From Clostridia bacterium (lineage in GTDB: Bacteria; Bacillota; Clostridia; Oscillospirales; Acutalibacteraceae), in contig JAFWUH010000045.1 in the NCBI GenBank assembly GCA_017524165.1, positions 1 to 39,815 of the forward strand: a stretch of DNA of 39,815 nt, in the 5' to 3' direction. Shown piece by piece: positions 28,938 to 39,815 of this stretch. Position 1 is the stretch's first letter; each line of letters starts with the position of its first letter. The notes under the pieces were generated by a model that did not search any database, had not been told where the DNA came from, and worked only from the letters and a program-made list of their open reading frames with translations. The translations under genes were made by a program, and so were the position numbers.

Positions 28938-28962
28938 GCGGTTCCGTTGACAACGGAACCGC
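28938..28962. promoter_or_regulatory. 25-bp palindrome over the -35 box (operator candidate)
   Basis: Arms GCGGTTCCGTTG (28938-28949) and CAACGGAACCGC (28951-28962) are exact reverse complements around a single central A. The -35 hexamer sits at the centre. With only one unpaired centre base and no T-run, a DNA-binding dimer site is more likely than a terminator. Confidence 0.7.
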
Positions 28963-28975
28963 CTTGTGCTATAAT
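28947..28975 (+). promoter_or_regulatory. Consensus promoter of polysaccharide/phosphonate operon
   Basis: TTGACA (28947-28952), 17-bp spacer, TATAAT (28970-28975): a perfect sigma-A consensus. The first start codon (29024) is 48 bp downstream. Confidence 0.88.
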
Positions 28976-29023: not shown

Positions 29024-30025
29024 ATGACGGTTTCGTTACATATTATTGCTTTGAATGAAGAATCCGCTCTGCCGGGATTGTTACAAGATGTTGTTGTACA
29101 GAATTACCCGCATGAAAAGATCGAAGTGGTGCTGGTAAACAGCGCCTCGACCGATGCAACCCGTTCTATTATGGACGATTTTGCGGCAGCACATACCGAT
29201 TTTTTGGCTGTCCGTGTGGTAGATAACCCCAAACGGTTTACCCCCTGCGCGTGGAACACGGCTTTGTCGGCATCTACCGCCGATATCGTCATTCACCTGG
29301 ACGCGCACGCCCGCATTCCGGAGGATTTTGTTGCGAAAAATGTTACGGTCATTCAATCGGGCAAGGACATTTGCGGCGGCGTCGTTCGCAATTTTTCCGC
29401 CCAAAAAACACGGTGGATCGAAACTGTCAATCAGGCGGAAGAAGCCATGTTCGGCGGCAGTATCGCCGCTTTTCGTCATTCGACTGCTTGTGGATATGTT
29501 TCGACCCTTGCTTTTGCCGCCTACCGCAAAGAGGTTTTTGAGGCGGTCGGCACCTACGATGAACGGTTGCTTCGCTCGGAAGACAATGAAATGCACCAGC
29601 GGATGCGAGAACACGGCTATCGTTTTTACTATACGCCAGACATCCAATCCTCCCGTCAAACAAGACCTAGCTTAAAGGCGCTTCTTCGGCAAAAATATCT
29701 CAACGGTTATTGGGTCGGCGAAACCGTAAAACTCTATCCGAAAAGCTTTTCGCTTTATCATTATGTACCGTTTGTTTTTCTGCTTGCGATCTTGGTGACC
29801 GCCGTCTTTGCCGGCTTTGGTTTCTGGCTTTTGGCGGCGTTGCTTTGGGCGGCGTACGGCATTGTTTTGATCGCTTCAACGATTGCGGCATTTCGTGCCG
29901 GCGGCTGGAATCCGTATTATTTTCTGTTGCCGGTCATTTTATTTTGTCTGCACCTTTCCTACGGTGCCGGCACCTTTGTCGGATTGGTCACCCGCCGTCC
30001 GGATCAAAAGAGGGAAAAAGCATGA
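29024..30025 (+). CDS. Glycosyltransferase family 2, ExoA-like, membrane-associated
   Basis: 333 residues. GT-A fold: SLHIIALNEESALPGLLQDV at the start, DAH (about 92-94) in the place of the DXD metal site, and RSEDNEMHQRMREHGYRFYY (about 185-204) as the acceptor-base ED region. At least two C-terminal membrane helices (about 248-318). The pattern resembles ExoA of succinoglycan synthesis. Inferred role: adds a sugar to a lipid-linked repeat unit at the cytoplasmic face. First gene of the operon; AAGGGG upstream; overlaps the next gene by 4 bp. Confidence 0.87.
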   Translation: MTVSLHIIALNEESALPGLLQDVVVQNYPHEKIEVVLVNSASTDATRSIMDDFAAAHTDFLAVRVVDNPKRFTPCAWNTALSASTADIVIHLDAHARIPEDFVAKNVTVIQSGKDICGGVVRNFSAQKTRWIETVNQAEEAMFGGSIAAFRHSTACGYVSTLAFAAYRKEVFEAVGTYDERLLRSEDNEMHQRMREHGYRFYYTPDIQSSRQTRPSLKALLRQKYLNGYWVGETVKLYPKSFSLYHYVPFVFLLAILVTAVFAGFGFWLLAALLWAAYGIVLIASTIAAFRAGGWNPYYFLLPVILFCLHLSYGAGTFVGLVTRRPDQKREKA

Positions 30026-31938
30026 ATTCGTTATCACCTGTCACTCCGGCGGAAATAAAAACCATTGCGTTTGATATTTTAAAGTATTTCCGTTCGGTCT
30101 GCGAAGAAAATCATATTCCGTATTCTCTTGCCTACGGCACCCTGCTCGGCGCCGTGCGGCACAGCGGTTTTATTCCGTGGGACGATGATGTGGATGTCTT
30201 TTTACTGCGCCGGGATTATGACCGTTTTCTTCAGGCGGTACAGCAGCGTCCGCATCCGCGGTTTCAACTTTTTACCGCCCAATCCCATCCCGATTTCTTT
30301 TATGCCTATGCCAAGCTGATTGATACCGATACCGTCATGAAAGAGTACGGTGTCCATCCCTTTTCGGGAAACGGTGTTTTTGTTGATATCTTTCCGCTGG
30401 ATAACATTCCGTCGGATGAAAAAGGCTTTGAGCGGTTTACGCGGCGACTCCGCTTCAATGCCGCTTTGCACAGCGCTTCTGTAATTCAACATTTGAACAA
30501 ATTTCAAAAGCCGCTTCGGTGGAAGCTCTCTGCGGCATTGTTAATGCCGCTTGCCAAGCTGTTTGGCACAAAATTTTGGTTAAAGCGTTATGATAAATTA
30601 TTGCACACCTATGATGGATCCGAGACAGAATATGTTTGTTGTCTGACCGAAAATCCGTCTTTTCGCGAACGCATCAAACGGACGCGGATGGAGCATTTGG
30701 AGTCTGTTCTGTTCGAGGGAGAGCCGTTCTCCTGTATGGCGGAAACCGAACAGTTTTTGATCGACCGTTACGGTGATTATCGAAAGCTTCCGCCGGTAGA
30801 AGCGCGCGGACTGCAACACAACTTTTCGGCATGGCACCGTCCTGAAAAACCTGTTTTACTGCATGTTGCCTATCTGACCGATGACGCTTTCAGCGGCGTC
30901 AATGTCGCCGTTGCCGGACATTTGCGGGCACAACAAAAAGAGGCGACGATCGGTCTGCTGAATATCGGTCCGGGCACACCCGACGGGCTTGAACAATTGA
31001 CCTATCGCAAACCGTTTCGGCTGGACGAGTTGCCGGAGCCGTTTTGCCGCCCTGATCTGGTGATCTTTCAAGAAACCTACCGTGCCGATTATCTGACCGT
31101 TGCGGCGCAATTGCGCCGCCGGAAGATCCCCTACATTACGGTTCCGCACGGAGAGCTTTCGGCTTCGGCGCAACAACATAAGCACTTAAAAAAGGCGGTT
31201 GCCAATGCCACCCTTTTTTATCCCTTTATCCACGGTGCCAAAGCCATTCAGTGCCTTTCGCCGTTTGAACTGGAGGAAGTACATTTCCCGGTGCCGAAAT
31301 TCCTGGCGACCAACGGTATTGCTCTGCCGCCGCAGGCAAAGACCGATTTTCGGCAGGACGGTTTTCAATTTGTATTTGTCGGTCGGTTAAGCCTTGCGGT
31401 CAAAGGACTGGATCTGATGACCGAGGCAGTGGCACAAGTCGCCGACGATTTCCGGAAGCATCGCGCACAACTGCATCTTTACGGCCCCGACCGTGAAGAT
31501 ACGGTTGCCCGTTTGACCGAAATGATTGCCGCCCAAAAGGTTGAAGACCTGGTCTTCCTGCATAACGCCGTCTCGGGAGAAGAAAAAGAGTCCGTTTTGA
31601 AAGACGCCGACCTGTTTATTCAAACCTCCCGTCACGAGGGTATGCCGATGGGTATTTTGGAGGCCTTGAGCTACGGTCTTCCCTGCGTCTTGACGCGCGG
31701 TACAACCTTATCGGATCGGGTTGCAGCTGCCGGCGCCGGTTTTGCCGCCGAAAATACGGCTTCTTCCATTGCCGCCGCGTTAAAAAGCGCCCTTTCGGTT
31801 GCGGAAAGCCGTCAGTTAAAATCCTATGGCGACGCCGCACGGACCTTTGTTGAACAAAACTTCTCTTGGGAGACCGTTGCGCGCGACACGGTCAGCATTT
31901 ATAAAAAAATGGGAGATGGATGCCTTGAACGAACATAA
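30022..31938 (+). CDS. LicD-family transferase fused to GT4-like glycosyltransferase
   Basis: 638 residues. Residues 1 to about 270 are a LicD domain: SLAYGTLLGAVRHSGFIPWD and DDDVDVFLLRRDYDRF carry the expected metal-binding Asp residues. LicD proteins transfer phosphocholine or similar groups from CDP-linked donors to glycans. From about 275 to the end is a GT-B glycosyltransferase: HVAYLTDDAFSGVNVAVAGH, ITVPHGELS, FVFVGRLSLAVKGLDLMTEA and EGMPMGILEALSYGLP (GT4 E-x7-E-like region). No stop or frameshift separates the halves. ATG 30022 overlaps the previous stop (ATGA). In this operon the moiety moved may be a phosphonate rather than phosphocholine. Confidence 0.87.
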   Translation: MNSLSPVTPAEIKTIAFDILKYFRSVCEENHIPYSLAYGTLLGAVRHSGFIPWDDDVDVFLLRRDYDRFLQAVQQRPHPRFQLFTAQSHPDFFYAYAKLIDTDTVMKEYGVHPFSGNGVFVDIFPLDNIPSDEKGFERFTRRLRFNAALHSASVIQHLNKFQKPLRWKLSAALLMPLAKLFGTKFWLKRYDKLLHTYDGSETEYVCCLTENPSFRERIKRTRMEHLESVLFEGEPFSCMAETEQFLIDRYGDYRKLPPVEARGLQHNFSAWHRPEKPVLLHVAYLTDDAFSGVNVAVAGHLRAQQKEATIGLLNIGPGTPDGLEQLTYRKPFRLDELPEPFCRPDLVIFQETYRADYLTVAAQLRRRKIPYITVPHGELSASAQQHKHLKKAVANATLFYPFIHGAKAIQCLSPFELEEVHFPVPKFLATNGIALPPQAKTDFRQDGFQFVFVGRLSLAVKGLDLMTEAVAQVADDFRKHRAQLHLYGPDREDTVARLTEMIAAQKVEDLVFLHNAVSGEEKESVLKDADLFIQTSRHEGMPMGILEALSYGLPCVLTRGTTLSDRVAAAGAGFAAENTASSIAAALKSALSVAESRQLKSYGDAARTFVEQNFSWETVARDTVSIYKKMGDGCLERT

Positions 31939-33139
31939 ACAACCTTTATCCCTGCCGGTCAGCATTCTTGCCGTCTATCTTTTCCTGTTGCCCCTTTCCG
32001 CCGGACTGGCAGGGTTTATCGGGGATATTTCTCTGCAAAACTATGTCGCTATTTTGTTCATCTTTATTTCGGTGTTGGGCTTTCTCCACCTGAAAAAAAT
32101 CGTCGTGCCGAACAGTATTTGGTTGTACGGTTTTTGGCTTTATACGGTGATGAGTATGTTTTGGACGCCGTCTTTTCAGCTTTCCTGGTATTTTACCACC
32201 TTTTTGCTGAATGTCGGCGTATACATTTGCGCGTTGAGCATCAACTATAACCGCCGTGAGCAACTGTTTTTGAAACGCGCCGTTTTGCTGGGCTTGTTTC
32301 CGGTTATTTTGGCGACGATTTTCAATATTGAAACCGCCGTCAATTTCCGCTTGATCATTACCGTTTTCAGCAAAATGGATCCGAATGATTTCGGCTGCGG
32401 CTTGGTGTTGATCGTTGCTTTGCTGTTTGCCATGCTGTTAGAAACAGACAAAAAGTATCCTTATGTGTTGTTGCCGGTTACGGCGGTCATTATTATTTTG
32501 ACCGGCTCGCGCGGCGCTATGATCATGTTCCTGACTGTCTTCGTTACCTGGTTGATTTTAAGCAATGTTCGCAAACGGTTTTTGATCCCGTTTCTTTTGA
32601 TTGCTGTATTTGTTGCGGCGTTTTATGCGTTTTACGATTATCTGCCGGAATTTTTGCGCGAGCGCCTCTCCTTTGCCGTATTAGCCGAAGACGGCGGCTC
32701 GGGACGGCTTAAAATTTGGCAGGCGGCGTTAAGCTCTTTTGTTGACTTTTCGCCGGCAAAAATGTTTATTGGCTCCGGGTACGGTTCCTTTCAGGAGTCG
32801 GTCCACTATATTGCCGCCGGTCACTACAGCACCTATGAATCTCATAATATTTGGGTCAACACCTTGATCGAAACCGGCTTGTTGGGCTTGACCTTGTTGG
32901 TCATGTTGTTTGTTAATTCTTTTATTATTGCCAAGCGCCGAAAGAATTATTGGGGAATCCTTTCACTGGTTGGTTTGGCGGTCGGCGGCGCGACGTTGGA
33001 CATGCAGGCCTTCCGTATTTTTCCCCTTGTCTTTTTTGTGGCTATTTCATTTGACGGAAAGGAAGATCCGCATGTTGAAGAACTTCACCGACAAAGTGAC
33101 GATCATTATTCCGGTCTACAACACGAAGGATTATCTTGA
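31916..33139 (+). CDS. O-antigen ligase / Wzy-like polymerase membrane protein
   Basis: About 407 residues with 10 or more membrane helices. Features of the O-antigen ligase/polymerase family: TGSRGAMIMFL in a helix, GSGYGSFQESVHYIAAG and the conserved YESHNIWVNTLIETGLLG in the large loop. Inferred role: polymerises lipid-linked repeat units outside the membrane. The start is unsure: ATG 31916, or TTG 31925 which has GGGAG at better spacing. The C-terminal 68 bp overlap the next gene in another frame. Confidence 0.83.
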   Translation: MDALNEHKQPLSLPVSILAVYLFLLPLSAGLAGFIGDISLQNYVAILFIFISVLGFLHLKKIVVPNSIWLYGFWLYTVMSMFWTPSFQLSWYFTTFLLNVGVYICALSINYNRREQLFLKRAVLLGLFPVILATIFNIETAVNFRLIITVFSKMDPNDFGCGLVLIVALLFAMLLETDKKYPYVLLPVTAVIIILTGSRGAMIMFLTVFVTWLILSNVRKRFLIPFLLIAVFVAAFYAFYDYLPEFLRERLSFAVLAEDGGSGRLKIWQAALSSFVDFSPAKMFIGSGYGSFQESVHYIAAGHYSTYESHNIWVNTLIETGLLGLTLLVMLFVNSFIIAKRRKNYWGILSLVGLAVGGATLDMQAFRIFPLVFFVAISFDGKEDPHVEELHRQSDDHYSGLQHEGLS

Positions 33140-34025
33140 CGAATGCGTCCGCAGTGTCCTCGGTCAAAGTTATACCAATTTGGAAATTCTGCTGGTGGAT
33201 GACGGCTCTACCGACTGTTCCGGCAAAATGTGCGACGATTTTGCCGCGGAAGATTCTCGTGTTCGGGTGATTCACCGGCAAAACGGCGGGCTTTCGGCGG
33301 CAAGGAACACCGGAATCGACGCCGCAACCTCGGATTATTTGATTTTTTTGGACGGCGACGATTATCTCACGCCGATTGCCGTGGAACAGTTGATTGCTAC
33401 CATTGCCGATAATGCTTGTCCGATCGGCGTTTGCACCTTTGCGATGGAGGAATCGGCGCTTTCTCCGGCGTTGGTCGACCGCGTTTTTACCTGTTCGTCC
33501 TCCGAAGCCATTCGTGAAATGTATACCGAAAAGACCTTTTTTACCACAGCGGGCTCGAAAATATTCCGCAAAGAATTATTTGATAACATCAAATTCCCGC
33601 AAGGGCTTTTATATGAGGATTTTGCCGTCATGTACCGCCTGTTTGACGCGGCGAAAACGGTTGCCTTTGCCGATGCAAAGATTTATTACTACCGCTACAC
33701 ACCGACCGGGATCACCAAATCTTCTTTCAAAAAGAAACACATGGATTATTTCACCGTCACGGACGAAGTGACGGCATATATTGCCGAATATCATCCTGAA
33801 CGGCTGTCTTTGGTCAATGACCGCACGGTACGCAACGCCATTTCCTTTTACCGGAAGATGAGCGAAAGCGGTTATGACGATAAAGAAGATTTGTCCCGTG
33901 TTCGCGGCTATGTCAAAAAGCATTATTGGCATTATTTACGCCAACCCTATTCCTTCTTCAGTAAGACCTACGGACTGTTGATCCTTCTTGCCCCCCGTTT
34001 GGCACATCTTTTATTTCGCAGGTGA
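33072..34025 (+). CDS. Glycosyltransferase family 2
   Basis: 317 residues. Typical GT2: VTIIIPVYNTKDYLDECVRS (9-28), EILLVDDGSTD, NGGLSAARNTGID and DXD motif in FLDGDDYL. KIFRKELF and LLYEDFAVMYRLF (acceptor-side Glu-Asp) follow. No clear membrane helices, so a cytoplasmic enzyme acting at the membrane. ATG 33072 lies 11 bp after GGAAAGGA inside the end of the polymerase gene. It overlaps the next gene's GTG in GTGA. Confidence 0.9.
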   Translation: MLKNFTDKVTIIIPVYNTKDYLDECVRSVLGQSYTNLEILLVDDGSTDCSGKMCDDFAAEDSRVRVIHRQNGGLSAARNTGIDAATSDYLIFLDGDDYLTPIAVEQLIATIADNACPIGVCTFAMEESALSPALVDRVFTCSSSEAIREMYTEKTFFTTAGSKIFRKELFDNIKFPQGLLYEDFAVMYRLFDAAKTVAFADAKIYYYRYTPTGITKSSFKKKHMDYFTVTDEVTAYIAEYHPERLSLVNDRTVRNAISFYRKMSESGYDDKEDLSRVRGYVKKHYWHYLRQPYSFFSKTYGLLILLAPRLAHLLFRR

Positions 34026-34030
34026 AAAAA

Positions 34031-34738
34031 TTGATTCGTGAATTTAAACGCACCCTGGAGACCTCTCCGCTGACCAAAAAGTTTTACGGCTGGCTTTATA
34101 CCGTAAAACACCGAAAAGAAACCGAAGCCGCAAAGGAACAGCTCCGCTCGCGTGGGGTTGAAACGGTGGCACAGATCCAGTCCATCCTTACCGCGTACGG
34201 ACATCCCTTCTTTTTTGATATGGGCACCCTGTTGGGCATTGTGCGCGAAGGAAAGCTCTTGGGGCACGATATGGATATTGATGTTGCCGTGTACGACGCC
34301 GAAGCCGACGATCTGCGGGACTTTCTCTTAAAAAACGGTTGCGAACACCGTTACCGCTACCGTTCCGACGCCTTTGGCGTGATGGAAGACTCCTATCGAC
34401 TGAACGGGATCAAATTTGACATTAATTATTATGTTCATGACGGGCAACGGGATGTCTGTTATCTTGCCTACCGCGACGAGGCGGAACAATATGCCTCCCT
34501 TACCGAAATGAGCGTGCTGGCATTATCCTGCCGTCCCATTCATGCATTGATTTTACAGCCATTTTTTGATACCGCCGTTTCGATTCCGAAAGATGCCGAA
34601 CAATATTTGGCTGAGCGGTACGGCGACGACTGGCGCATCCCGAATAAAAACTGGAAATACTGGAAAGGTCCGAGTGTTACCAAAACAGGGAAACGCGGTA
34701 CCAAAGAAATAATTCCGACAACGGAGGAACAAAAATGA
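34031..34738 (+). CDS. LicD-family phosphotransferase (second, stand-alone)
   Basis: About 235 residues. FFFDMGTLLGIVREGKLLGH and DMDIDVAVYDAEADDL form the LicD/fukutin-like nucleotidyltransferase-fold core with metal Asp residues; AERYGDDWRIPNKNW near the end is typical of LicD proteins. I prefer TTG 34031, 5 bp after AGGTGA; GTG 34022 overlapping the previous stop is the alternative. It precedes the PEP mutase fusion by a 4-bp overlap, which supports a role in attaching the CMP-activated phosphonate made there. Confidence 0.82.
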   Translation: MIREFKRTLETSPLTKKFYGWLYTVKHRKETEAAKEQLRSRGVETVAQIQSILTAYGHPFFFDMGTLLGIVREGKLLGHDMDIDVAVYDAEADDLRDFLLKNGCEHRYRYRSDAFGVMEDSYRLNGIKFDINYYVHDGQRDVCYLAYRDEAEQYASLTEMSVLALSCRPIHALILQPFFDTAVSIPKDAEQYLAERYGDDWRIPNKNWKYWKGPSVTKTGKRGTKEIIPTTEEQK

Positions 34739-36750
34739 TTGCTTTAATTTTAAACTCAGGCCGCGGCAGCCGTATGGACATTCTGACGGCGGAGCATCCA
34801 AAATGCATGACCGAAATTTCACCGAACGAGACCATCTTAAGCCGCCAGCTGAAACAGATCGTCGAAGCCGGCATCGAGAAGGTTGTCATTACGACCGGCT
34901 ATAAAAACGAAGTCTTGACCGAATACTGCAACAGATTAGATCTGCCGCTGGATATTACCTTTGTGCATAACGATGCCTTTATGGAAACCAATTACATCTA
35001 TTCTATCTATTTGGCACGCGAATTTTTGCAGGATGATATTTTACTGATGCACGGGGACTTGGTGGTAGAGAATACCGTATTTGACGAGATTTGCGAACAG
35101 GCTCACAGTTGTATGACGGTCAGCACGACGCTTGCGCTGCCGCAGAAGGATTTCAAGGCGGTAGTCGAGGACGGCACGATCCAAAAGGTCGGTATTGAGT
35201 TTTTCGACAACGCTGTGGCGGCACAACCCCTTTATCACCTGAAAAAAGAAGATTGGTGCCGTTGGTTAGACAATATTTCGGCTTTCTGCGAAAGCGGCGC
35301 GACGGAAAAACGCACCTGCTACGCCGAAAACGCGCTGAACGAATTGAACGGCGCATGTAATATCAAACCCTTCGATTTTAAAGACCGTCTTTGTGCGGAA
35401 ATTGATACGCCGGAGGATCTGAAAACGGTTAGCGAACGGTTGAAAGCGTTGGAGAACCGCCTGGTTTATCTTTGCTTTTCTACCGATATTCTGCACGGCG
35501 GACATATTGCACTCTTGAAGAAAGCGCGCCGGCTCGGTCGATTGATTGTCGGCGTGTTGAACGACGAAACGGTGGCTTCCTACAAGCGTTTCCCGTTGGT
35601 ACCGTTTGAAGAGCGTAAAAAACTGTTCCAAAACATTGCCGGCGTATATAAAGTAGTGGAGCAAAAGCAGTTGAGTTACCGCGAAAATCTGGAACAATAC
35701 CGTCCTGATTTTGTGGTGCACGGCGACGATTGGGTCTCAGGCTTCCAAAAACCGATTCGCGACGAAGTGTTGGCGGTTTTAGCCACCTATGGCGGAAAGT
35801 TGGTGGAATTTCCCTATGCCGACCAAGCTGAATACAAGCAGTTGGACGACCGTGCCCGGATGGAGCTTTCTCTGCCCGATGTACGCCGCCGCCGTTTGCG
35901 CCGCGTGATCGAAATGAAGGGACTTGCCACAGCCATTGAGGCACACAGCGGTTTGACCGGTCTGATCGCCGAAAAAACCACCGTGCAAAAAGACGGCAAG
36001 ACCTATCAGTTTGACGCGATGTGGGTTTCCTCGCTGTGCGATTCCACCGCAAAAGGCAAGCCGGATATCGAATTGGTCGACATGACCTCCCGCTTCCGCA
36101 CCATCGACGATATTATGGAGGTCACCACCAAGCCGATCATCTTTGACGGCGACACCGGCGGATTGACCGAACACTTTGTTTATACCGTAAAATCCCTGGA
36201 ACGCATGGGCGTTTCCATGGTCATTATCGAAGATAAAACCGGACTGAAAAAGAACAGTCTGTTCGGCACCGAAGTGGCGCAGACACAGGATAGTATCGAA
36301 AATTTCTGTGCTAAGATCGCCGCCGGCAAAAAAGCGCAGAAAACAAAAGATTTCATGATTTGCGCGCGCATTGAAAGCTTGATTCTGGAGCGCGGCATGG
36401 AGGATGCCCTGACCCGTGCGTTTGCCTTTGTAGGCGCCGGCGCCGATGCCATCATGATCCACAGCCGCAAAAAAGACCCTGCCGAAATTTTTGAATTTGT
36501 TGAAAAATTCCGCGCCAAGGATGCGACGACCCCGATCGTGGTCGTGCCGACCTCCTTTAACTCGGTCACCGAGGAAGAATTCAAACAGCGCGGCGTTAAT
36601 GTAGTGATCTACGCCAACCAGCTGACCCGAAGCGGGTTCCCTGCCATGCAGCGTGCCGCCCAAACCATTTTGGAACACCATCGCGCGCAGGAGTGCGACG
36701 CCACATTGATGTCCATTAAAGATATTATCACCCTGATTCCGGAGGAATAA
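34735..36750 (+). CDS. pepM: LicC-like nucleotidyltransferase / cytidylyltransferase-like / phosphoenolpyruvate mutase fusion
   Basis: 671 residues, three domains. (1) Residues 1-235: LicC-type NTP transferase (LILNSGRGSRM, HPKCMTEI with Lys23, ETNYIYSIYLAREFL, AEIDTPEDLK), expected to make a CMP ester. (2) About 242-385: cytidylyltransferase-like domain as in AepX N-termini, with HGGH (254-257) for HxGH, but the usual later GISTT/GISST motif is replaced by ADQAEYKQ (362-369), so it may be inactive. (3) About 390-671: PEP mutase with SSLCDS (432-437), DGDTGG (471-476, Mg-binding) and EDKTGLKKNS (499-508), the motif that separates mutases from isocitrate lyases. The mutase forms the C-P bond of phosphonopyruvate. 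It overlaps the LicD gene by 4 bp and is followed by the reductase after 3 bp. Confidence 0.93.
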   Translation: MIALILNSGRGSRMDILTAEHPKCMTEISPNETILSRQLKQIVEAGIEKVVITTGYKNEVLTEYCNRLDLPLDITFVHNDAFMETNYIYSIYLAREFLQDDILLMHGDLVVENTVFDEICEQAHSCMTVSTTLALPQKDFKAVVEDGTIQKVGIEFFDNAVAAQPLYHLKKEDWCRWLDNISAFCESGATEKRTCYAENALNELNGACNIKPFDFKDRLCAEIDTPEDLKTVSERLKALENRLVYLCFSTDILHGGHIALLKKARRLGRLIVGVLNDETVASYKRFPLVPFEERKKLFQNIAGVYKVVEQKQLSYRENLEQYRPDFVVHGDDWVSGFQKPIRDEVLAVLATYGGKLVEFPYADQAEYKQLDDRARMELSLPDVRRRRLRRVIEMKGLATAIEAHSGLTGLIAEKTTVQKDGKTYQFDAMWVSSLCDSTAKGKPDIELVDMTSRFRTIDDIMEVTTKPIIFDGDTGGLTEHFVYTVKSLERMGVSMVIIEDKTGLKKNSLFGTEVAQTQDSIENFCAKIAAGKKAQKTKDFMICARIESLILERGMEDALTRAFAFVGAGADAIMIHSRKKDPAEIFEFVEKFRAKDATTPIVVVPTSFNSVTEEEFKQRGVNVVIYANQLTRSGFPAMQRAAQTILEHHRAQECDATLMSIKDIITLIPEE

Positions 36751-36753
36751 GCC

Positions 36754-37854
36754 ATGCAGGAGGTTTTATCGGGGCGCGGCTCCGCCGGCAGCTTGCAGGC
36801 GGTCTTGAAACAGCACGGCTTGCAAAAAGTATTGATCGTTTGTGACGGTTCCTATCCCTTTTTGTCGGTCAAGCCGATCGTGGACGGTTGGGATTTGCCG
36901 CATGTTTTCTTCTCGGAGTTTACCCCAAATCCTTTATACGAAGATGTTTGCAAAGGGGTTGCCGCTTTCCGCGACAACGATTGCGACGGTATTGTCGCCA
37001 TCGGCGGCGGCAGTACGATTGATGTTGCCAAGTGTATCAAGCTGTTTTGCGGACTCTCCGACGCGGCGCTTTATTTGGATCAACCCTATCGCGACAGCGG
37101 TATTCCGCTTTTTGCCCTGCCGACCACGGCGGGCACCGGCAGTGAATCCACCCATTTTGCCGTGATTTATTATCAAAACCAAAAACAATCGGTTGCACAC
37201 GAAAGTTTGTTGCCGAACGGCGTGGTTTTGGACAGCTCGGTGTTGTCCTCTTTGCCGGTTTATCAAAAAAAATGCACGCTGTTGGACGCCCTTTGTCAGG
37301 GAATCGAATCGTGGTGGTCGGTAAATTCGACCGACGAAAGTCTGGCATTTTCCCGGCTTGCCGTTCGTGAAATCATGACTCATTATGCCGACTACCTCGC
37401 CGGAGATATTGCGGCGGAGGACGCGATTTTGACCGCCGCCAACACCGCGGGGCGCGCCATTAATATTACCCAAACCACGGCGGCGCATGCCATGAGCTAC
37501 CAATTGACCAAACGGTATCAATTGCCGCACGGTCATGCCGTTGCGATTGGTCTGCCGTATCTTTGGCGGTATATGCTCGCGCATTTGGATCAATGTGTGG
37601 ATCCGCGCGGTGCCGCTTATCTGGAACAGGTTTTTTCGGATATTGCTCACGCGATGGGACAACCCGACGTCGATGCCGCCATTGCCCGGTTTGAGGCATT
37701 GTTACGCGAACTGGATCTGCAGCATCCCGGCCCGCAAGCAGAGGGCGATTTGGCGATGTTGGTCGGCTCGGTCAATCAACAACGACTGAAAAACAATCCC
37801 GTTGCCCTTTCCGAAGACGCCATTCGCGCACTTTATCAGAAAATTTTGTCATAA
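36754..37854 (+). CDS. Phosphonoacetaldehyde reductase (iron-type alcohol dehydrogenase family)
   Basis: 366 residues. Nucleotide-binding AIGGGSTIDVAK (82-93) and LPTTAGTGSE (122-131) place it in group III alcohol dehydrogenases. Metal residues: Asp178, His245, His259, but Gln182 stands where most members have His (DALCQGIESW against DALxHxxE). As I recall, Gln and the WSVNST segment are shared by the phosphonoacetaldehyde reductase (PhpC-like) group. Position next to pepM supports reduction of phosphonoacetaldehyde to 2-hydroxyethylphosphonate with NAD(P)H. Starts 3 bp after pepM. Confidence 0.85.
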   Translation: MQEVLSGRGSAGSLQAVLKQHGLQKVLIVCDGSYPFLSVKPIVDGWDLPHVFFSEFTPNPLYEDVCKGVAAFRDNDCDGIVAIGGGSTIDVAKCIKLFCGLSDAALYLDQPYRDSGIPLFALPTTAGTGSESTHFAVIYYQNQKQSVAHESLLPNGVVLDSSVLSSLPVYQKKCTLLDALCQGIESWWSVNSTDESLAFSRLAVREIMTHYADYLAGDIAAEDAILTAANTAGRAINITQTTAAHAMSYQLTKRYQLPHGHAVAIGLPYLWRYMLAHLDQCVDPRGAAYLEQVFSDIAHAMGQPDVDAAIARFEALLRELDLQHPGPQAEGDLAMLVGSVNQQRLKNNPVALSEDAIRALYQKILS

Positions 37855-37871
37855 ATAGATTGGAACAGAAA

Positions 37872-39314
37872 ATGAAACAACTGTTAAACCGATGGCATAA
37901 CATCCCGATCGGTGTGAAAGCTTCGGTGGCATACTTTTTTGCCAGCATGGTCACCAAAGCGATCGTGTATTTGGTCACCCCGATTTTTACCCGGTTACTG
38001 ACGCCGGCTGAATTCGGTCGGGTGTCGGTCTATCTTACCTGGAAAGAGACCCTTGGTATTGTGGCGATGTTCTGCCTCTCCTACGGGGTTTTTAACAACG
38101 GTATGCTGGATCACGAAAATGACCGTGACGGTTATTCCTTCTCCATGCTGATTTTGGCAAACATCATCACCGCCGTCTGTACGGTGCTGGTTTTGTCGGT
38201 TCACACCGTCGTCGGCGGATTTGCCAAACTGCCCTTACCCTTTTTACTGTTGATGTTGACCGGTTTCTTCTTTCAACCGGCATTGGATTTCTGGATGGCA
38301 CGGCAACGGTATGAGTACCGCTATAAAGGACCGGTTTTAGTCTCGATTTTGACCTCTTTTTTGTCGGCGTCCAGCGCCGTCATCGGCATTCTGATTTTCC
38401 GGGACAACCGTCCTTTCGGCCGTGTGTTCGGTTCGGATTTGGTCTTTATTTGTACCGGACTTTTCTTTTACATCTATTTAGCGCGGCAAGGCAGAAAAAA
38501 ATTTAATCCCTCTTATTGGAAAGAGGCGCTTTCCTTTAACCTTCCGCTCATTCCGCACTATCTTTCGACCTATTTGTTGGGCAATTCCGATAAACTGATG
38601 ATTGATTTTCTGATCGGCAGCAGCGCGACCGCTTATTACAGCGTGGCGCATTCCATTGCGGCGGTGGTCATTATCGTTTGGTCCGCCGCCAATACTTCGC
38701 TGATCCCCTTTACCTACGAAAAATGCCGCAACAACGATTTTGACGCTATTTCCCGCGTCACCCTGCCGATTTTGACCGTCTTCGGCGTGGCTTGCATTTT
38801 TATGATCCTGCTGGCGCCAGAAGCCATCGCCCTGATCTCTACCAAGGATTATATGGAAGCCATCTATGTGGTTCCCCCGATCGTCGGCGGCGTCTTTTTC
38901 CAAACGAATTATTATATCTACGCCAATATTCTTTATTATTATAAAAAGCCGAAAATGGTTATGCTCGGCAGTTTGACCGCCACCGGCTTGAATATCATTT
39001 TAAACTACATTTTTATTTCCCGTTTCGGTTACATTGCGGCGGGATATACGACCCTGTTCTGTTATCTAGTACAGGCGGCGATTGATTATATCGGCATGTA
39101 TCGGGTCCTGCACCGTTCGGTCTACCGCATGGATTATATCGGTCTGTTGGCGGGCGGGATCATCCTGATTTCGATCTTCAGCAAGCTGATTTACGACTAC
39201 CGGGCAATTCGCTACGGCATCGTGGTCGCGCTGATCCTTGCCGCCATTATTTTCCATAAAAAAATGATTCAAATATTCCTCTTTTCCAAAGGAGAACAAA
39301 AAAATGAAACTTGA
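37872..39314 (+). CDS. Wzx-like polysaccharide flippase
   Basis: About 480 residues, 12-14 membrane helices. N-terminal SVAYFFASMVTKAIVYLVTP followed by FTRLLTPAEFG is the classic start of Wzx/RfbX-type flippases of the MOP superfamily; PHYLSTYLLGNSDKLMIDFL starts the second half. Moves lipid-linked repeat units across the membrane. ATG 37872 is preferred; TTG 37860 is in frame upstream. Overlaps the decarboxylase start by 11 bp. Confidence 0.92.
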   Translation: MKQLLNRWHNIPIGVKASVAYFFASMVTKAIVYLVTPIFTRLLTPAEFGRVSVYLTWKETLGIVAMFCLSYGVFNNGMLDHENDRDGYSFSMLILANIITAVCTVLVLSVHTVVGGFAKLPLPFLLLMLTGFFFQPALDFWMARQRYEYRYKGPVLVSILTSFLSASSAVIGILIFRDNRPFGRVFGSDLVFICTGLFFYIYLARQGRKKFNPSYWKEALSFNLPLIPHYLSTYLLGNSDKLMIDFLIGSSATAYYSVAHSIAAVVIIVWSAANTSLIPFTYEKCRNNDFDAISRVTLPILTVFGVACIFMILLAPEAIALISTKDYMEAIYVVPPIVGGVFFQTNYYIYANILYYYKKPKMVMLGSLTATGLNIILNYIFISRFGYIAAGYTTLFCYLVQAAIDYIGMYRVLHRSVYRMDYIGLLAGGIILISIFSKLIYDYRAIRYGIVVALILAAIIFHKKMIQIFLFSKGEQKNET

Positions 39315-39815
39315 TTTTTTAAAGCAATTTGATTTTTTTACCGGCGTTCCTGACTCTCAATTGAAACCGCTGTGCAACTATCTGATGGATACCTACGGCA
39401 TTTCCAAAAACCACATCATTGCCGCCAACGAAGGCAACTGCGCCGCTTTGGCGGCGGGATATCACCTGGCGACGGGAAAGGTGCCGGTGGTATATCTGCA
39501 AAACAGCGGGATCGGCAATATCATCAATCCCGTTGCCTCGTTAATGAACGATAAAGTATACGGCATACCCTGTATTTTCTTTGTCGGCTGGCGCGGCGAG
39601 CCGGGCGTGCACGATGAACCCCAGCATCTCTACCAGGGCGAAGTGACGATCAAGCTGTTGGAAGACATGGATATTCGCACTTTTGTGATCGACAAAGAAA
39701 CCACCGAGGAACAGGTCGAAGCACAGCTTGCCGACTGGAAGCCGCTCTTAAACGCCGGCAAGCAGGTCGCTTTTGTTGTGAAAAAGGGCGCGCTGTCCTG
39801 GGACGGTAAAGTGAC
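39304..39815 (+). CDS. aepY: Phosphonopyruvate decarboxylase, N-terminal part (runs off the edge)
   Basis: 170 codons are visible, open at the right edge (family about 370-380). Thiamine-diphosphate enzyme that decarboxylates phosphonopyruvate to phosphonoacetaldehyde and so drives the unfavourable mutase step. FFTGVPDSQLKPLC (11-24), ANEGNCAALAAGYHLATGK (41-59, with ThDP-activating Glu43), YLQNSGIGNIINPVASL and GWRGEPGVHDEPQH are all hallmarks. ATG 39304 with AAAGGAG. The C-terminal ThDP-pyrophosphate region and any following transaminase gene lie beyond the window. Confidence 0.94.
   Translation, partial: MKLDFLKQFDFFTGVPDSQLKPLCNYLMDTYGISKNHIIAANEGNCAALAAGYHLATGKVPVVYLQNSGIGNIINPVASLMNDKVYGIPCIFFVGWRGEPGVHDEPQHLYQGEVTIKLLEDMDIRTFVIDKETTEEQVEAQLADWKPLLNAGKQVAFVVKKGALSWDGKV

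What the first reader, a model, noticed from the sequence alone, without database searches (positions are those of the whole stretch)
29024..39815. Phosphonate-decorated exopolysaccharide locus (2-hydroxyethylphosphonate predicted)
In one operon: PEP mutase, phosphonopyruvate decarboxylase and phosphonoacetaldehyde reductase (three steps to 2-hydroxyethylphosphonate), a LicC-like activating domain, two LicD transferases, and a complete Wzx/Wzy-style assembly set with several glycosyltransferases. Known: PEP mutase marks phosphonate synthesis; LicC/LicD activate and attach phosphocholine-type groups; phosphonoglycans occur in some actinobacteria and other organisms. Inference: this spore-forming Firmicute makes a surface glycan with C-P bonded substituents, which could resist phosphatases and alter host or phage recognition. 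The full combination with LicD chemistry seems little described.
Basis: partly seen in the sequence, partly recalled or inferred. Interest (0 to 1): 0.85.

Follow-up and report, generated by a model that had tools for sequence, protein, structure and literature searches.

The report
Phosphonate-tagging cassette in a sugar-coat operon
A spore-forming bacterium carries one operon that appears to make a small molecule with a stable carbon-phosphorus bond, 2-hydroxyethylphosphonate, load it onto a nucleotide and attach it to a surface sugar polymer; the same enzyme cassette recurs in dozens of other bacterial genomes, many of them from guts and rumens.

Summary
One operon (29024 to the contig end) encodes a PEP mutase protein, an Fe-ADH, the first half of a phosphonopyruvate decarboxylase, LicD proteins, Wzx, Wzy and glycosyltransferases. 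Comparison supports HEP over AEP. All three cassette genes occur together in 71 of 80 named relatives. In 56 loci of the window's family and class, 30 of 31 with the Fe-ADH carry a distinct LicC subfamily (HGD...KDFK); the one AEP-transaminase locus of 13 that carries it also has the Fe-ADH. This subfamily lacks the residue that contacts the amine of AEP in PntC, and relatives fuse it to the reductase and to LicD. Most likely the operon makes CMP-HEP for transfer to a surface glycan. Triple fusions, cytidylyl activation and nearby LicD genes were published in 2019, so this is a new variant. Why two cytidylyltransferases are kept is open. Five related genomes in which no PEP mutase was found pair this LicC with an organophosphate-type transporter, suggesting scavenging. 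No chemistry was tested.

The parts
28938..28962 (.). perfect 12-bp-arm palindrome (1-nt spacer) centred on the -35 hexamer; possible repressor operator
   Evidence: its inner 21 bases occur only here in the window within 3 mismatches and its inner 19 bases only here in the own genome within 2 mismatches
28947..28975 (+). perfect consensus sigma-70-type promoter, TTGACA-17-TATAAT with extended -10
   Evidence: 12 of 12 consensus positions, 48 nt upstream of the first gene. The number of promoter-like sites in the region (11) is not above the shuffles (mean 11.8); only this one is perfect
29024..30025 (+). GT2 glycosyltransferase
   Evidence: PF00535 73.9 bits
30022..31938 (+). LicD-GT4 fusion, 638 aa (LicD aa 27-251, GT4 aa about 440-600)
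   Evidence: PF04991 144.6 bits, PF00534 84.5 bits; one open frame
31916..33139 (+). Wzy-like polymerase / O-antigen ligase family (start codon chosen by me)
   Evidence: PF04932 62.4 bits
33072..34025 (+). GT2 glycosyltransferase
   Evidence: PF00535 131.6 bits
34022..34738 (+). second, divergent LicD-like protein
   Evidence: PF04991 23.5 bits against cut-off 22.6: marginal
34735..36750 (+). 671-aa triple fusion: LicC-like + Fom1-type cytidylyltransferase + PEP mutase
   Evidence: 76 of the 80 named relatives kept have the same fusion
34735..35439 (+). LicC-like domain with subfamily signature HGDL (aa 106-109, 35050-35061) and KDFKA (aa 138-142, 35146-35160)
35449..35829 (+). Fom1-type CTP_transf_like domain (HxGH kept)
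   Evidence: (5x3d, E 7e-37), (60 of 124 residues identical to the Fom1 stretch)
35887..36750 (+). PEP mutase domain, motif EDKTGLKKNS
   Evidence: TIGR02320 399.4 bits, cut-off 319.55
36754..37854 (+). iron-containing alcohol dehydrogenase, inferred phosphonoacetaldehyde reductase (HEP-forming)
   Evidence: PF00465 133 bits; best NCBIfam hit TIGR03405 148.6 bits, below cut-off; an Fe-ADH is in 76 of the 80 named loci
37860..39314 (+). Wzx-type flippase
   Evidence: PF01943 53.3 bits
39304..39815 (+). N-terminal 170 aa of phosphonopyruvate decarboxylase (AepY/Ppd), cut by the contig end
   Evidence: TIGR03297 194.7 bits over profile 1-156; C-terminal piece on contig C57

Best explanation
The operon makes 2-hydroxyethylphosphonate (HEP), activates it as CMP-HEP and transfers it to a surface polysaccharide. 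PEP mutase (C-terminal domain of the triple fusion) makes phosphonopyruvate; AepY decarboxylates it to phosphonoacetaldehyde; the Fe-ADH reduces that to HEP; the cytidylyltransferase domains of the same triple fusion make CMP-HEP; LicD (the LicD-GT4 fusion, perhaps also the divergent LicD) transfers the hydroxyethylphosphonyl group to a sugar, while Wzx and Wzy export and polymerise the repeat unit. Shown by sequence: gene content, family membership, motifs, conserved cassette, fusions in relatives, co-occurrence. Inferred: substrates, order of steps, glycan acceptor. I take the KDFK-type LicC domain to be a HEP-specific counterpart of PntC. The Fom1-type domain is expected from its family to act on HEP too; why both are kept is not explained.
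For: PEP mutase, AepY half and Fe-ADH in one operon. No transaminase over cut-off in the genome. Of the 80 named relatives kept, triple fusion in 76, Fe-ADH in 76, AepY in 77, all three in 71. CyT identity to the Fom1 stretch: window 48%; group means 51% in 83 rows (nearly all from Fe-ADH clusters; L022 is of unknown type), 56% in 6 rows from the LicC-ADH-type group, 42% in 5 rows from AEP clusters. LicC E216 (metal, per Rice et al.) and D107 (metal role recalled) are kept as E222 and D108, while the position of PntC Glu104 / LicC Asp105, near the amine of AEP in PntC, is His106. Of 104 aligned LicC rows 92 have HGD[LM], 6 do not cover the site, 6 differ (section 8 of Rice et al.). 30 of 31 Fe-ADH loci carry KDFK LicC; of 13 AEP-transaminase loci the only one that does (G445) also has the Fe-ADH. 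Fusions: LicC-FeADH (L050), LicC-FeADH-LicD (L049), LicC-CyT-FeADH without PEP mutase (L171), LicC-FeADH-GT2-LicD2-like (L190).
Against: No chemistry. Fe-ADH below its model's cut-off; AepY incomplete. The link of LicC type to product rests on few independent switches: 2 pairs on well-supported branches (3 on all branches), both going the expected way, sign test p 0.5. One Fe-ADH locus (G562) has no KDFK LicC. KDFK-type LicC also occurs in 8 genomes in which no PEP mutase was found (76-99% complete), so its substrate could be something those cells import or make otherwise, such as glycerol-3-phosphate. Two cytidylyltransferases for one substrate look redundant.
Confidence: 0.72

Rival explanations
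1. Two different decorations. The Fom1-type domain makes CMP-HEP, while the LicC domain activates an ordinary phosphate ester (for example glycerol-3-phosphate) for LicD or for a PF04464 transferase, and the fusion only co-expresses them.
For: KDFK-type LicC stands next to an OPA-like (PgtP/GlpT-like) transporter in 5 of 8 genomes in which no PEP mutase was found; PF04464 is named after CDP-glycerol transfer; the window has two LicD-like proteins.
Against: KDFK LicC tracks the Fe-ADH rather than PEP mutase in general and is fused directly to the Fe-ADH in several relatives; the transporter-linked forms group with the two Fe-ADH-fused forms in the tree (100/100; nesting inside them only 86/63), which suggests a shared substrate.
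Confidence: 0.2
2. The final phosphonate is not HEP but 2-aminoethylphosphonate or a further product, made with an enzyme elsewhere in the genome.
For: A phosphonate can be modified by enzymes outside the cluster; 13 of the 56 loci do carry a transaminase.
Against: Only weak class V aminotransferase hits in the own genome (46.7 and 37.9 bits, cut-off 360.8); Fe-ADH in place of transaminase; LicC residues unlike PntC.
Confidence: 0.08
3. The phosphonate is an exported small molecule or a phosphonolipid, and the glycan genes are only neighbours.
For: In L113 the PEP mutase-FeADH-AepY genes sit among genes that, where identified, are housekeeping or sporulation genes (7 proteins scanned); L118 has the same gene layout. 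LicD-family proteins include lipid cholinephosphotransferases (NF045866 matches below cut-off).
Against: In the window all genes are in one tight operon with Wzx, Wzy and GTs; LicC-FeADH-LicD and LicC-FeADH-GT2-LicD2-like fusions tie activation to transfer.
Confidence: 0.12

Closest known systems
PntC phosphonyl-tailoring pathways (Treponema denticola, Atopobium rimae, Olsenella uli; Rice et al. 2019, PMC6697681)
   Same: LicC-like cytidylyltransferase activates a phosphonate made by PEP mutase; LicD-like or glycosyltransferase genes nearby; [quoted passage not shown]
   Different: Those clusters encode AEP production; here an Fe-ADH stands where they have a transaminase, and the LicC-like domain belongs to another subfamily (HGD/KDFK instead of the ESDL form of T. 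denticola PntC).
Triple fusions PF12804 + PF01467 + PEP mutase (42 counted in Rice et al. 2019)
   Same: Same domain content.
   Different: In the parts read they are only counted; no substrate, gene context or subfamily is given. Whether their domain order is the same was not seen.
Fom1 of fosfomycin biosynthesis (PDB 5x3d; Cho et al. 2017, not held, known here through Rice et al.)
   Same: Cytidylyltransferase domain fused N-terminally to PEP mutase; the window's domain is 48% identical to the aligned Fom1 stretch; CMP-HEP is the predicted product.
   Different: There CMP-HEP is an intermediate of a small antibiotic; here it is predicted to be a donor for a glycan, and a second, LicC-like domain is added.
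Phosphonoglycans of Glycomyces and Stackebrandtia (Yu et al. 2014; not held, seen only as a reference in PMC8931226; HEP content recalled)
   Same: Exopolysaccharide carrying phosphonate, by recollection HEP.
   Different: Actinobacteria; whether those clusters hold this fusion or this LicC subfamily was not checked.
LicA-D phosphocholine decoration of Streptococcus pneumoniae (LicC 1jyk)
   Same: Activation by a LicC-fold enzyme; LicD as transferase; full-length profile match to 1jyk, E 2.4e-31.
   Different: No choline kinase or permease among the nine proteins of the operon; the positions of LicC D105 and W136 are His and Asp here.

Membership tests
PEP mutase | TIGR02320 above curated cut-off | tested here: met
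   399.4 bits, cut-off 319.55
PEP mutase | motif EDKXXXXXNS that separates PEP mutase from isocitrate lyase relatives (Rice et al. 2019) | tested here: met
   EDKTGLKKNS in the translation
Fom1-type HEP cytidylyltransferase | sequence membership and HxGH motif | tested here: met
   best solved relative 5x3d, E 7e-37; 60 of 124 residues identical; both His of HxGH invariant in 12 rows
Fom1-type HEP cytidylyltransferase | CMP-HEP formation | not testable with these tools
   needs enzyme assay
PntC / LicC cytidylyltransferases | nucleotide motif GXG(T/S)RX4-8PK (Rice et al. 2019) and metal-binding Asp and Glu | tested here: met
   GRGSRMDILTAEHPK; D108 and E222 align with LicC D107 (metal role recalled) and E216 (metal role in Rice et al.)
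PntC (AEP-specific) | Glu104 that contacts the amine of AEP in T. denticola PntC | tested here: not met
   His106 in the window; 92 of 104 aligned LicC rows have HGD[LM]; the Glu196 partner is kept as E198
LicC (phosphocholine-specific) | aromatic residue W136 of the choline box (residue and role recalled) | tested here: not met
   Asp139 at the aligned position
LicD family | PF04991 above gathering score | tested here: met
   first copy 144.6 bits; second copy only 23.5 against 22.6
Phosphonopyruvate decarboxylase | TIGR03297 above cut-off over the full length | tested here: inconclusive
   194.5 and 109.2 bits on two contigs, cut-off 312.5; gene interrupted by contig ends
Phosphonate-type Fe-ADH (TIGR03405) | score above cut-off | tested here: not met
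   148.6 of 423.7; the best-scoring NCBIfam model for this protein nevertheless, and the context fits
Wzx/Wzy-dependent polysaccharide pathway | initiating transferase, flippase and polymerase together | tested here: inconclusive
   Wzx and Wzy in the operon; four PF02397 matches on other contigs
Phosphonoglycan | C-P bonded phosphorus on a purified polysaccharide | not testable with these tools
   needs 31P NMR

The most novel reading that the evidence does not exclude
A HEP-dedicated branch of surface phosphonate chemistry in gut and rumen bacteria. A separate LicC subfamily (HGD/KDFK) is a HEP cytidylyltransferase that is fed by one of two HEP sources: the PEP mutase-AepY-FeADH cassette, or an OPA-like importer in species without PEP mutase, which would scavenge HEP shed by neighbours and use it to decorate their own envelope (through LicD or PF04464/YidC-like transferase modules).
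Probability: 0.3. Interest if true: 0.78.

Novelty: new variant of a known kind. Interest (0 to 1): 0.56.

Why it matters
Which phosphonate is loaded onto bacterial surfaces, and by which enzymes, is largely unknown. The data give a short sequence signature that may predict HEP rather than AEP, natural fusions that order the pathway (reduction, activation, transfer), and carriers whose records are not marked as metagenome assemblies (Xylanibacter ruminicola D31d, Ruminococcus sp. FC2018) in which it can be tested. If right, HEP-modified envelopes are spread through Clostridia and Bacteroidales of guts and rumens, with consequences for phosphorus flow, enzyme resistance of the polymer and host or phage recognition (all inferred).

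Tried and rejected

Led nowhere or gave little: eight searches of the open PubMed Central library, of which Rice et al. was the only paper close to the point; a sign test on independent pairs, with too few switches. Papers: PMC6697681 abstract, sections 6, 8, 10 and passages; PMC8931226, PMC6429109, PMC11448209 and PMC13302981 passages only; the other papers in the listings were not opened (for 'phosphonoglycan' 20 of 38 were listed).

Limits of the counts. In one search several loci have only about 1.5 kb of flank, so absence of Fe-ADH or transaminase there is weak; G553 has KDFR in place of KDFK and is counted as lacking the motif; the three Fe-ADH-less loci with KDFK LicC (G083, G035, G490) are on contigs of 4.6 to 8.3 kb. 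The profiles were made by me from single seeds, with hand-set thresholds. The 80 named loci are the best-scoring of 584, so they over-represent the triple fusion; Bacillota or Bacteroidota was read by me from record titles (L111 names no group and was put with Bacillota). The 104 LicC rows include a few partial copies.

Full report
What is there. The window is the whole contig C27 of a 1.53-Mb draft genome in 88 contigs, 98.6% complete. From 29024 to the contig end nine genes run on the + strand, overlapping or with gaps of at most 5 nt: GT2, a LicD-GT4 fusion, Wzy, GT2, a divergent LicD, a 671-aa PEP mutase fusion, an Fe-ADH, Wzx and the first 170 aa of AepY. A perfect sigma-70-type promoter lies 48 nt upstream of the first gene, with a perfect palindrome centred on its -35 hexamer; the number of promoter-like sites in the region is otherwise at the level of shuffles (11 against 11.8). 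SpoVAD just upstream (455.8 bits) agrees with a spore former.

The fusion. The PEP mutase protein has three parts: a LicC/PntC-like nucleotidyltransferase, a CTP_transf_like domain and PEP mutase. PEP mutase passes its curated cut-off and has the motif EDKTGLKKNS. The middle domain's best solved relative is the cytidylyltransferase domain of Fom1 (5x3d; 60 of 124 residues identical), which makes CMP-HEP according to Rice et al. 2019 (PMC6697681, section 6).

What follows the contig end. The genome has two strong AepY pieces (and two weak hits): the N-terminal one at the end of C27 and one covering profile positions 271-360 at the end of C57, a 3.9-kb contig. C57 probably continues the operon after a gap; this is inferred. 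Its next genes are an NTP_transf_5 protein, an unassigned protein and a SpoIID/peptidoglycan-binding protein. No transaminase and no gene set for a small phosphonate is seen there. A search of the genome for the AEP transaminase model gave only two weak hits (46.7 and 37.9 bits, cut-off 360.8).

How common it is. Within the family, 10 of 300 genomes (own included) have a match over the triple fusion; one of these reaches a contig end and one has an inner stop. Across the class, 12 of 391 do (own included); G532, G490 and G650 have LicC and CyT-PEP mutase as neighbouring separate genes. The 80 best were kept: 61 Bacillota and 19 Bacteroidota by my reading of the titles, many of them from rumens or guts, and a few records not marked as metagenome assemblies, such as Xylanibacter ruminicola D31d and Ruminococcus sp. 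FC2018. In these 80 the triple fusion is present in 76, Fe-ADH in 76, AepY in 77, all three in 71. The order is fusion-ADH-AepY in 56 Bacillota and fusion-AepY-ADH in 18 Bacteroidota. LicD is seen within the fetched flank in 29 and a PF04464/YidC-like gene in 12, all Bacillota; many loci are cut by contig ends. These 80 are the best scorers and so favour the fusion.

HEP rather than AEP. tabulates 56 loci from the family and class samples. Of 31 with an Fe-ADH (over 120 bits of a home-made profile) 30 carry a LicC domain with the motif KDFK. Of 25 without, 3 do; these lie on contigs of 4.6 to 8.3 kb. Of 13 loci with an AEP transaminase one carries KDFK LicC, and that locus (G445, L187) holds a HEP-type and an AEP-type cluster side by side. 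Fisher's p is 2e-11, but it ignores kinship: on the PEP mutase tree (41 rows, labels set by me) there are only 2 independent pairs on well-supported branches, 3 on all branches; the 2 tested go the expected way, sign test p 0.5. G499 is informative: its PEP mutase branches among AEP-type ones, its CyT scores like theirs, yet it has the Fe-ADH together with KDFK LicC. The CyT domains also differ: mean identity to the Fom1 stretch is 51% in 83 rows nearly all from Fe-ADH clusters, 56% in 6 rows of the LicC-ADH-type group and 42% in 5 rows from AEP clusters.

Residues. A profile of the subfamily aligns over its full length with LicC (1jyk) and PntC (6pd1). LicC E216 and D107 are kept as E222 and D108. 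The position of PntC Glu104 / LicC Asp105, described as near the amine (section 8 of Rice et al.), is His106; LicC W136, recalled as part of the choline box, is Asp139 (one search confirms the window's letters). Of 104 aligned LicC rows 92 have HGD[LM], 6 do not cover the site and 6 differ. The differing rows include a LicC-aminotransferase and a LicC-LicD fusion (L124, L130) with ESDL, as in PntC. This speaks against AEP and phosphocholine as substrates and fits HEP; it does not prove it.

Fusions that order the pathway. Relatives fuse LicC to Fe-ADH (602 aa, L050; Fe-ADH part also by NCBIfam), LicC-FeADH-LicD (968 aa, L049), LicC-CyT-FeADH without PEP mutase (740 aa, L171), and LicC-FeADH-GT2-LicD2-like (1197 aa, L190; the LicD2-like end by my own profile, not by Pfam). 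They tie reduction, activation and transfer together.

Scavenging lead. Eight genomes with KDFK-type LicC and no PEP mutase hit were searched for TIGR02320: none had it (0 of 8; 76-99% complete), while the two positive controls in the same call, G000 and G004, did. In five of the eight (G297, G023, G070, G235, G049) LicC adjoins an MFS transporter of one kind; the two examined by NCBIfam score best with PgtP/GlpT-type organophosphate models, below their cut-offs. In G257 the contig ends beside LicC; in G270 LicC follows a LicD gene among glycan genes, and in G183 it stands alone among pyrimidine genes. In G023 (99% complete) the run is LicC, transporter, PF04464-like protein, YidC-like protein (L139, by my profiles), the last two being of the kind found beside the HEP cassette in L039, L074, L101, L112 and L114. 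In L113 and L118, which have PEP mutase, Fe-ADH and AepY but no LicC in the cluster, a LicC of the transporter type occurs elsewhere in the genome, next to that transporter. In the LicC tree the transporter-linked rows form one group with the two Fe-ADH-fused rows (100/100); their nesting inside them is weakly supported (86/63), and the outgroups have long branches. Import replacing synthesis of the same substrate is my reading; glycerol-3-phosphate as the substrate is not excluded.

Open point. Two cytidylyltransferases per cluster is not peculiar to HEP: 10 of the 13 transaminase loci also have a non-KDFK LicC over 60 bits besides the CyT fused to PEP mutase, and Rice et al. remark that their three AEP clusters have both a fused and a nearby nucleotidyltransferase (section 6). 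The one Fe-ADH locus without KDFK LicC (G562, L179) has a second stand-alone CyT instead. The need for two remains unexplained.

Known and new. Triple fusions (42), cytidylyl activation, PntC and nearby LicD-like genes were published in 2019. HEP on actinobacterial exopolysaccharide is recalled from Yu et al. 2014, which is not held. My eight searches of the open PubMed Central library listed no paper whose title or abstract start describes a HEP-specific LicC subfamily or this cassette in gut bacteria; subscription papers were not covered and most listed papers were not opened. I therefore file it as a new variant of a known kind.

Noticed in passing
window 28938-28975: A perfect consensus promoter whose -35 hexamer sits at the centre of a perfect 25-nt palindrome; its inner 19 bases are found nowhere else in the genome within 2 mismatches. 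Looks like a single-operon repressor site.
   Followed up: partly
window 30022-31938: LicD and a GT4 glycosyltransferase are one 638-aa open frame, so decoration and sugar transfer may be coupled.
   Followed up: no
L139 7760-13924; L140 9416-11465; L141 3-1885; L142 5113-7181: KDFK-type LicC next to an OPA-like organophosphate transporter, in G023 (L139) followed by PF04464-like and YidC-like genes, in L140-L142 beside an HTH-IspD gene; in G023 and G049 no PEP mutase was found.
   Followed up: partly
L174 7141-13310; L178 103-6165; L202 2561-8790; L182 2698-8901: A third kind of phosphonate cluster: CyT-PEP mutase and AepY with a metallophosphoesterase, an epimerase/dehydratase, a LicC-like protein (DUF6564 by Pfam in L174) and a further dehydrogenase-like or unassigned protein; neither Fe-ADH nor AEP transaminase seen. 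Pfam was run on L174 and L178; L202 and L182 agree by gene layout only.
   Followed up: partly
L039, L040, L046, L104, L112: Modules of a PF04464 (CDP-glycerol-type) transferase with YidC-like and, in L039 and L040, sulfatase/LTA-synthase-like domains beside the HEP cassette (Pfam or NCBIfam on L039, L040, L046, L104; L112 by my profiles); possibly a teichoic-acid-like use of CMP-HEP.
   Followed up: partly
L187 6561-15665: One genome carries a HEP-type and an AEP-type phosphonate cluster back to back, each with its own CyT-PEP mutase and its own type of LicC.
   Followed up: partly
L179 7381-15556: The one Fe-ADH locus without KDFK LicC has a second, stand-alone CyT domain protein in its place, beside a 504-aa LicD protein.
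   Followed up: partly
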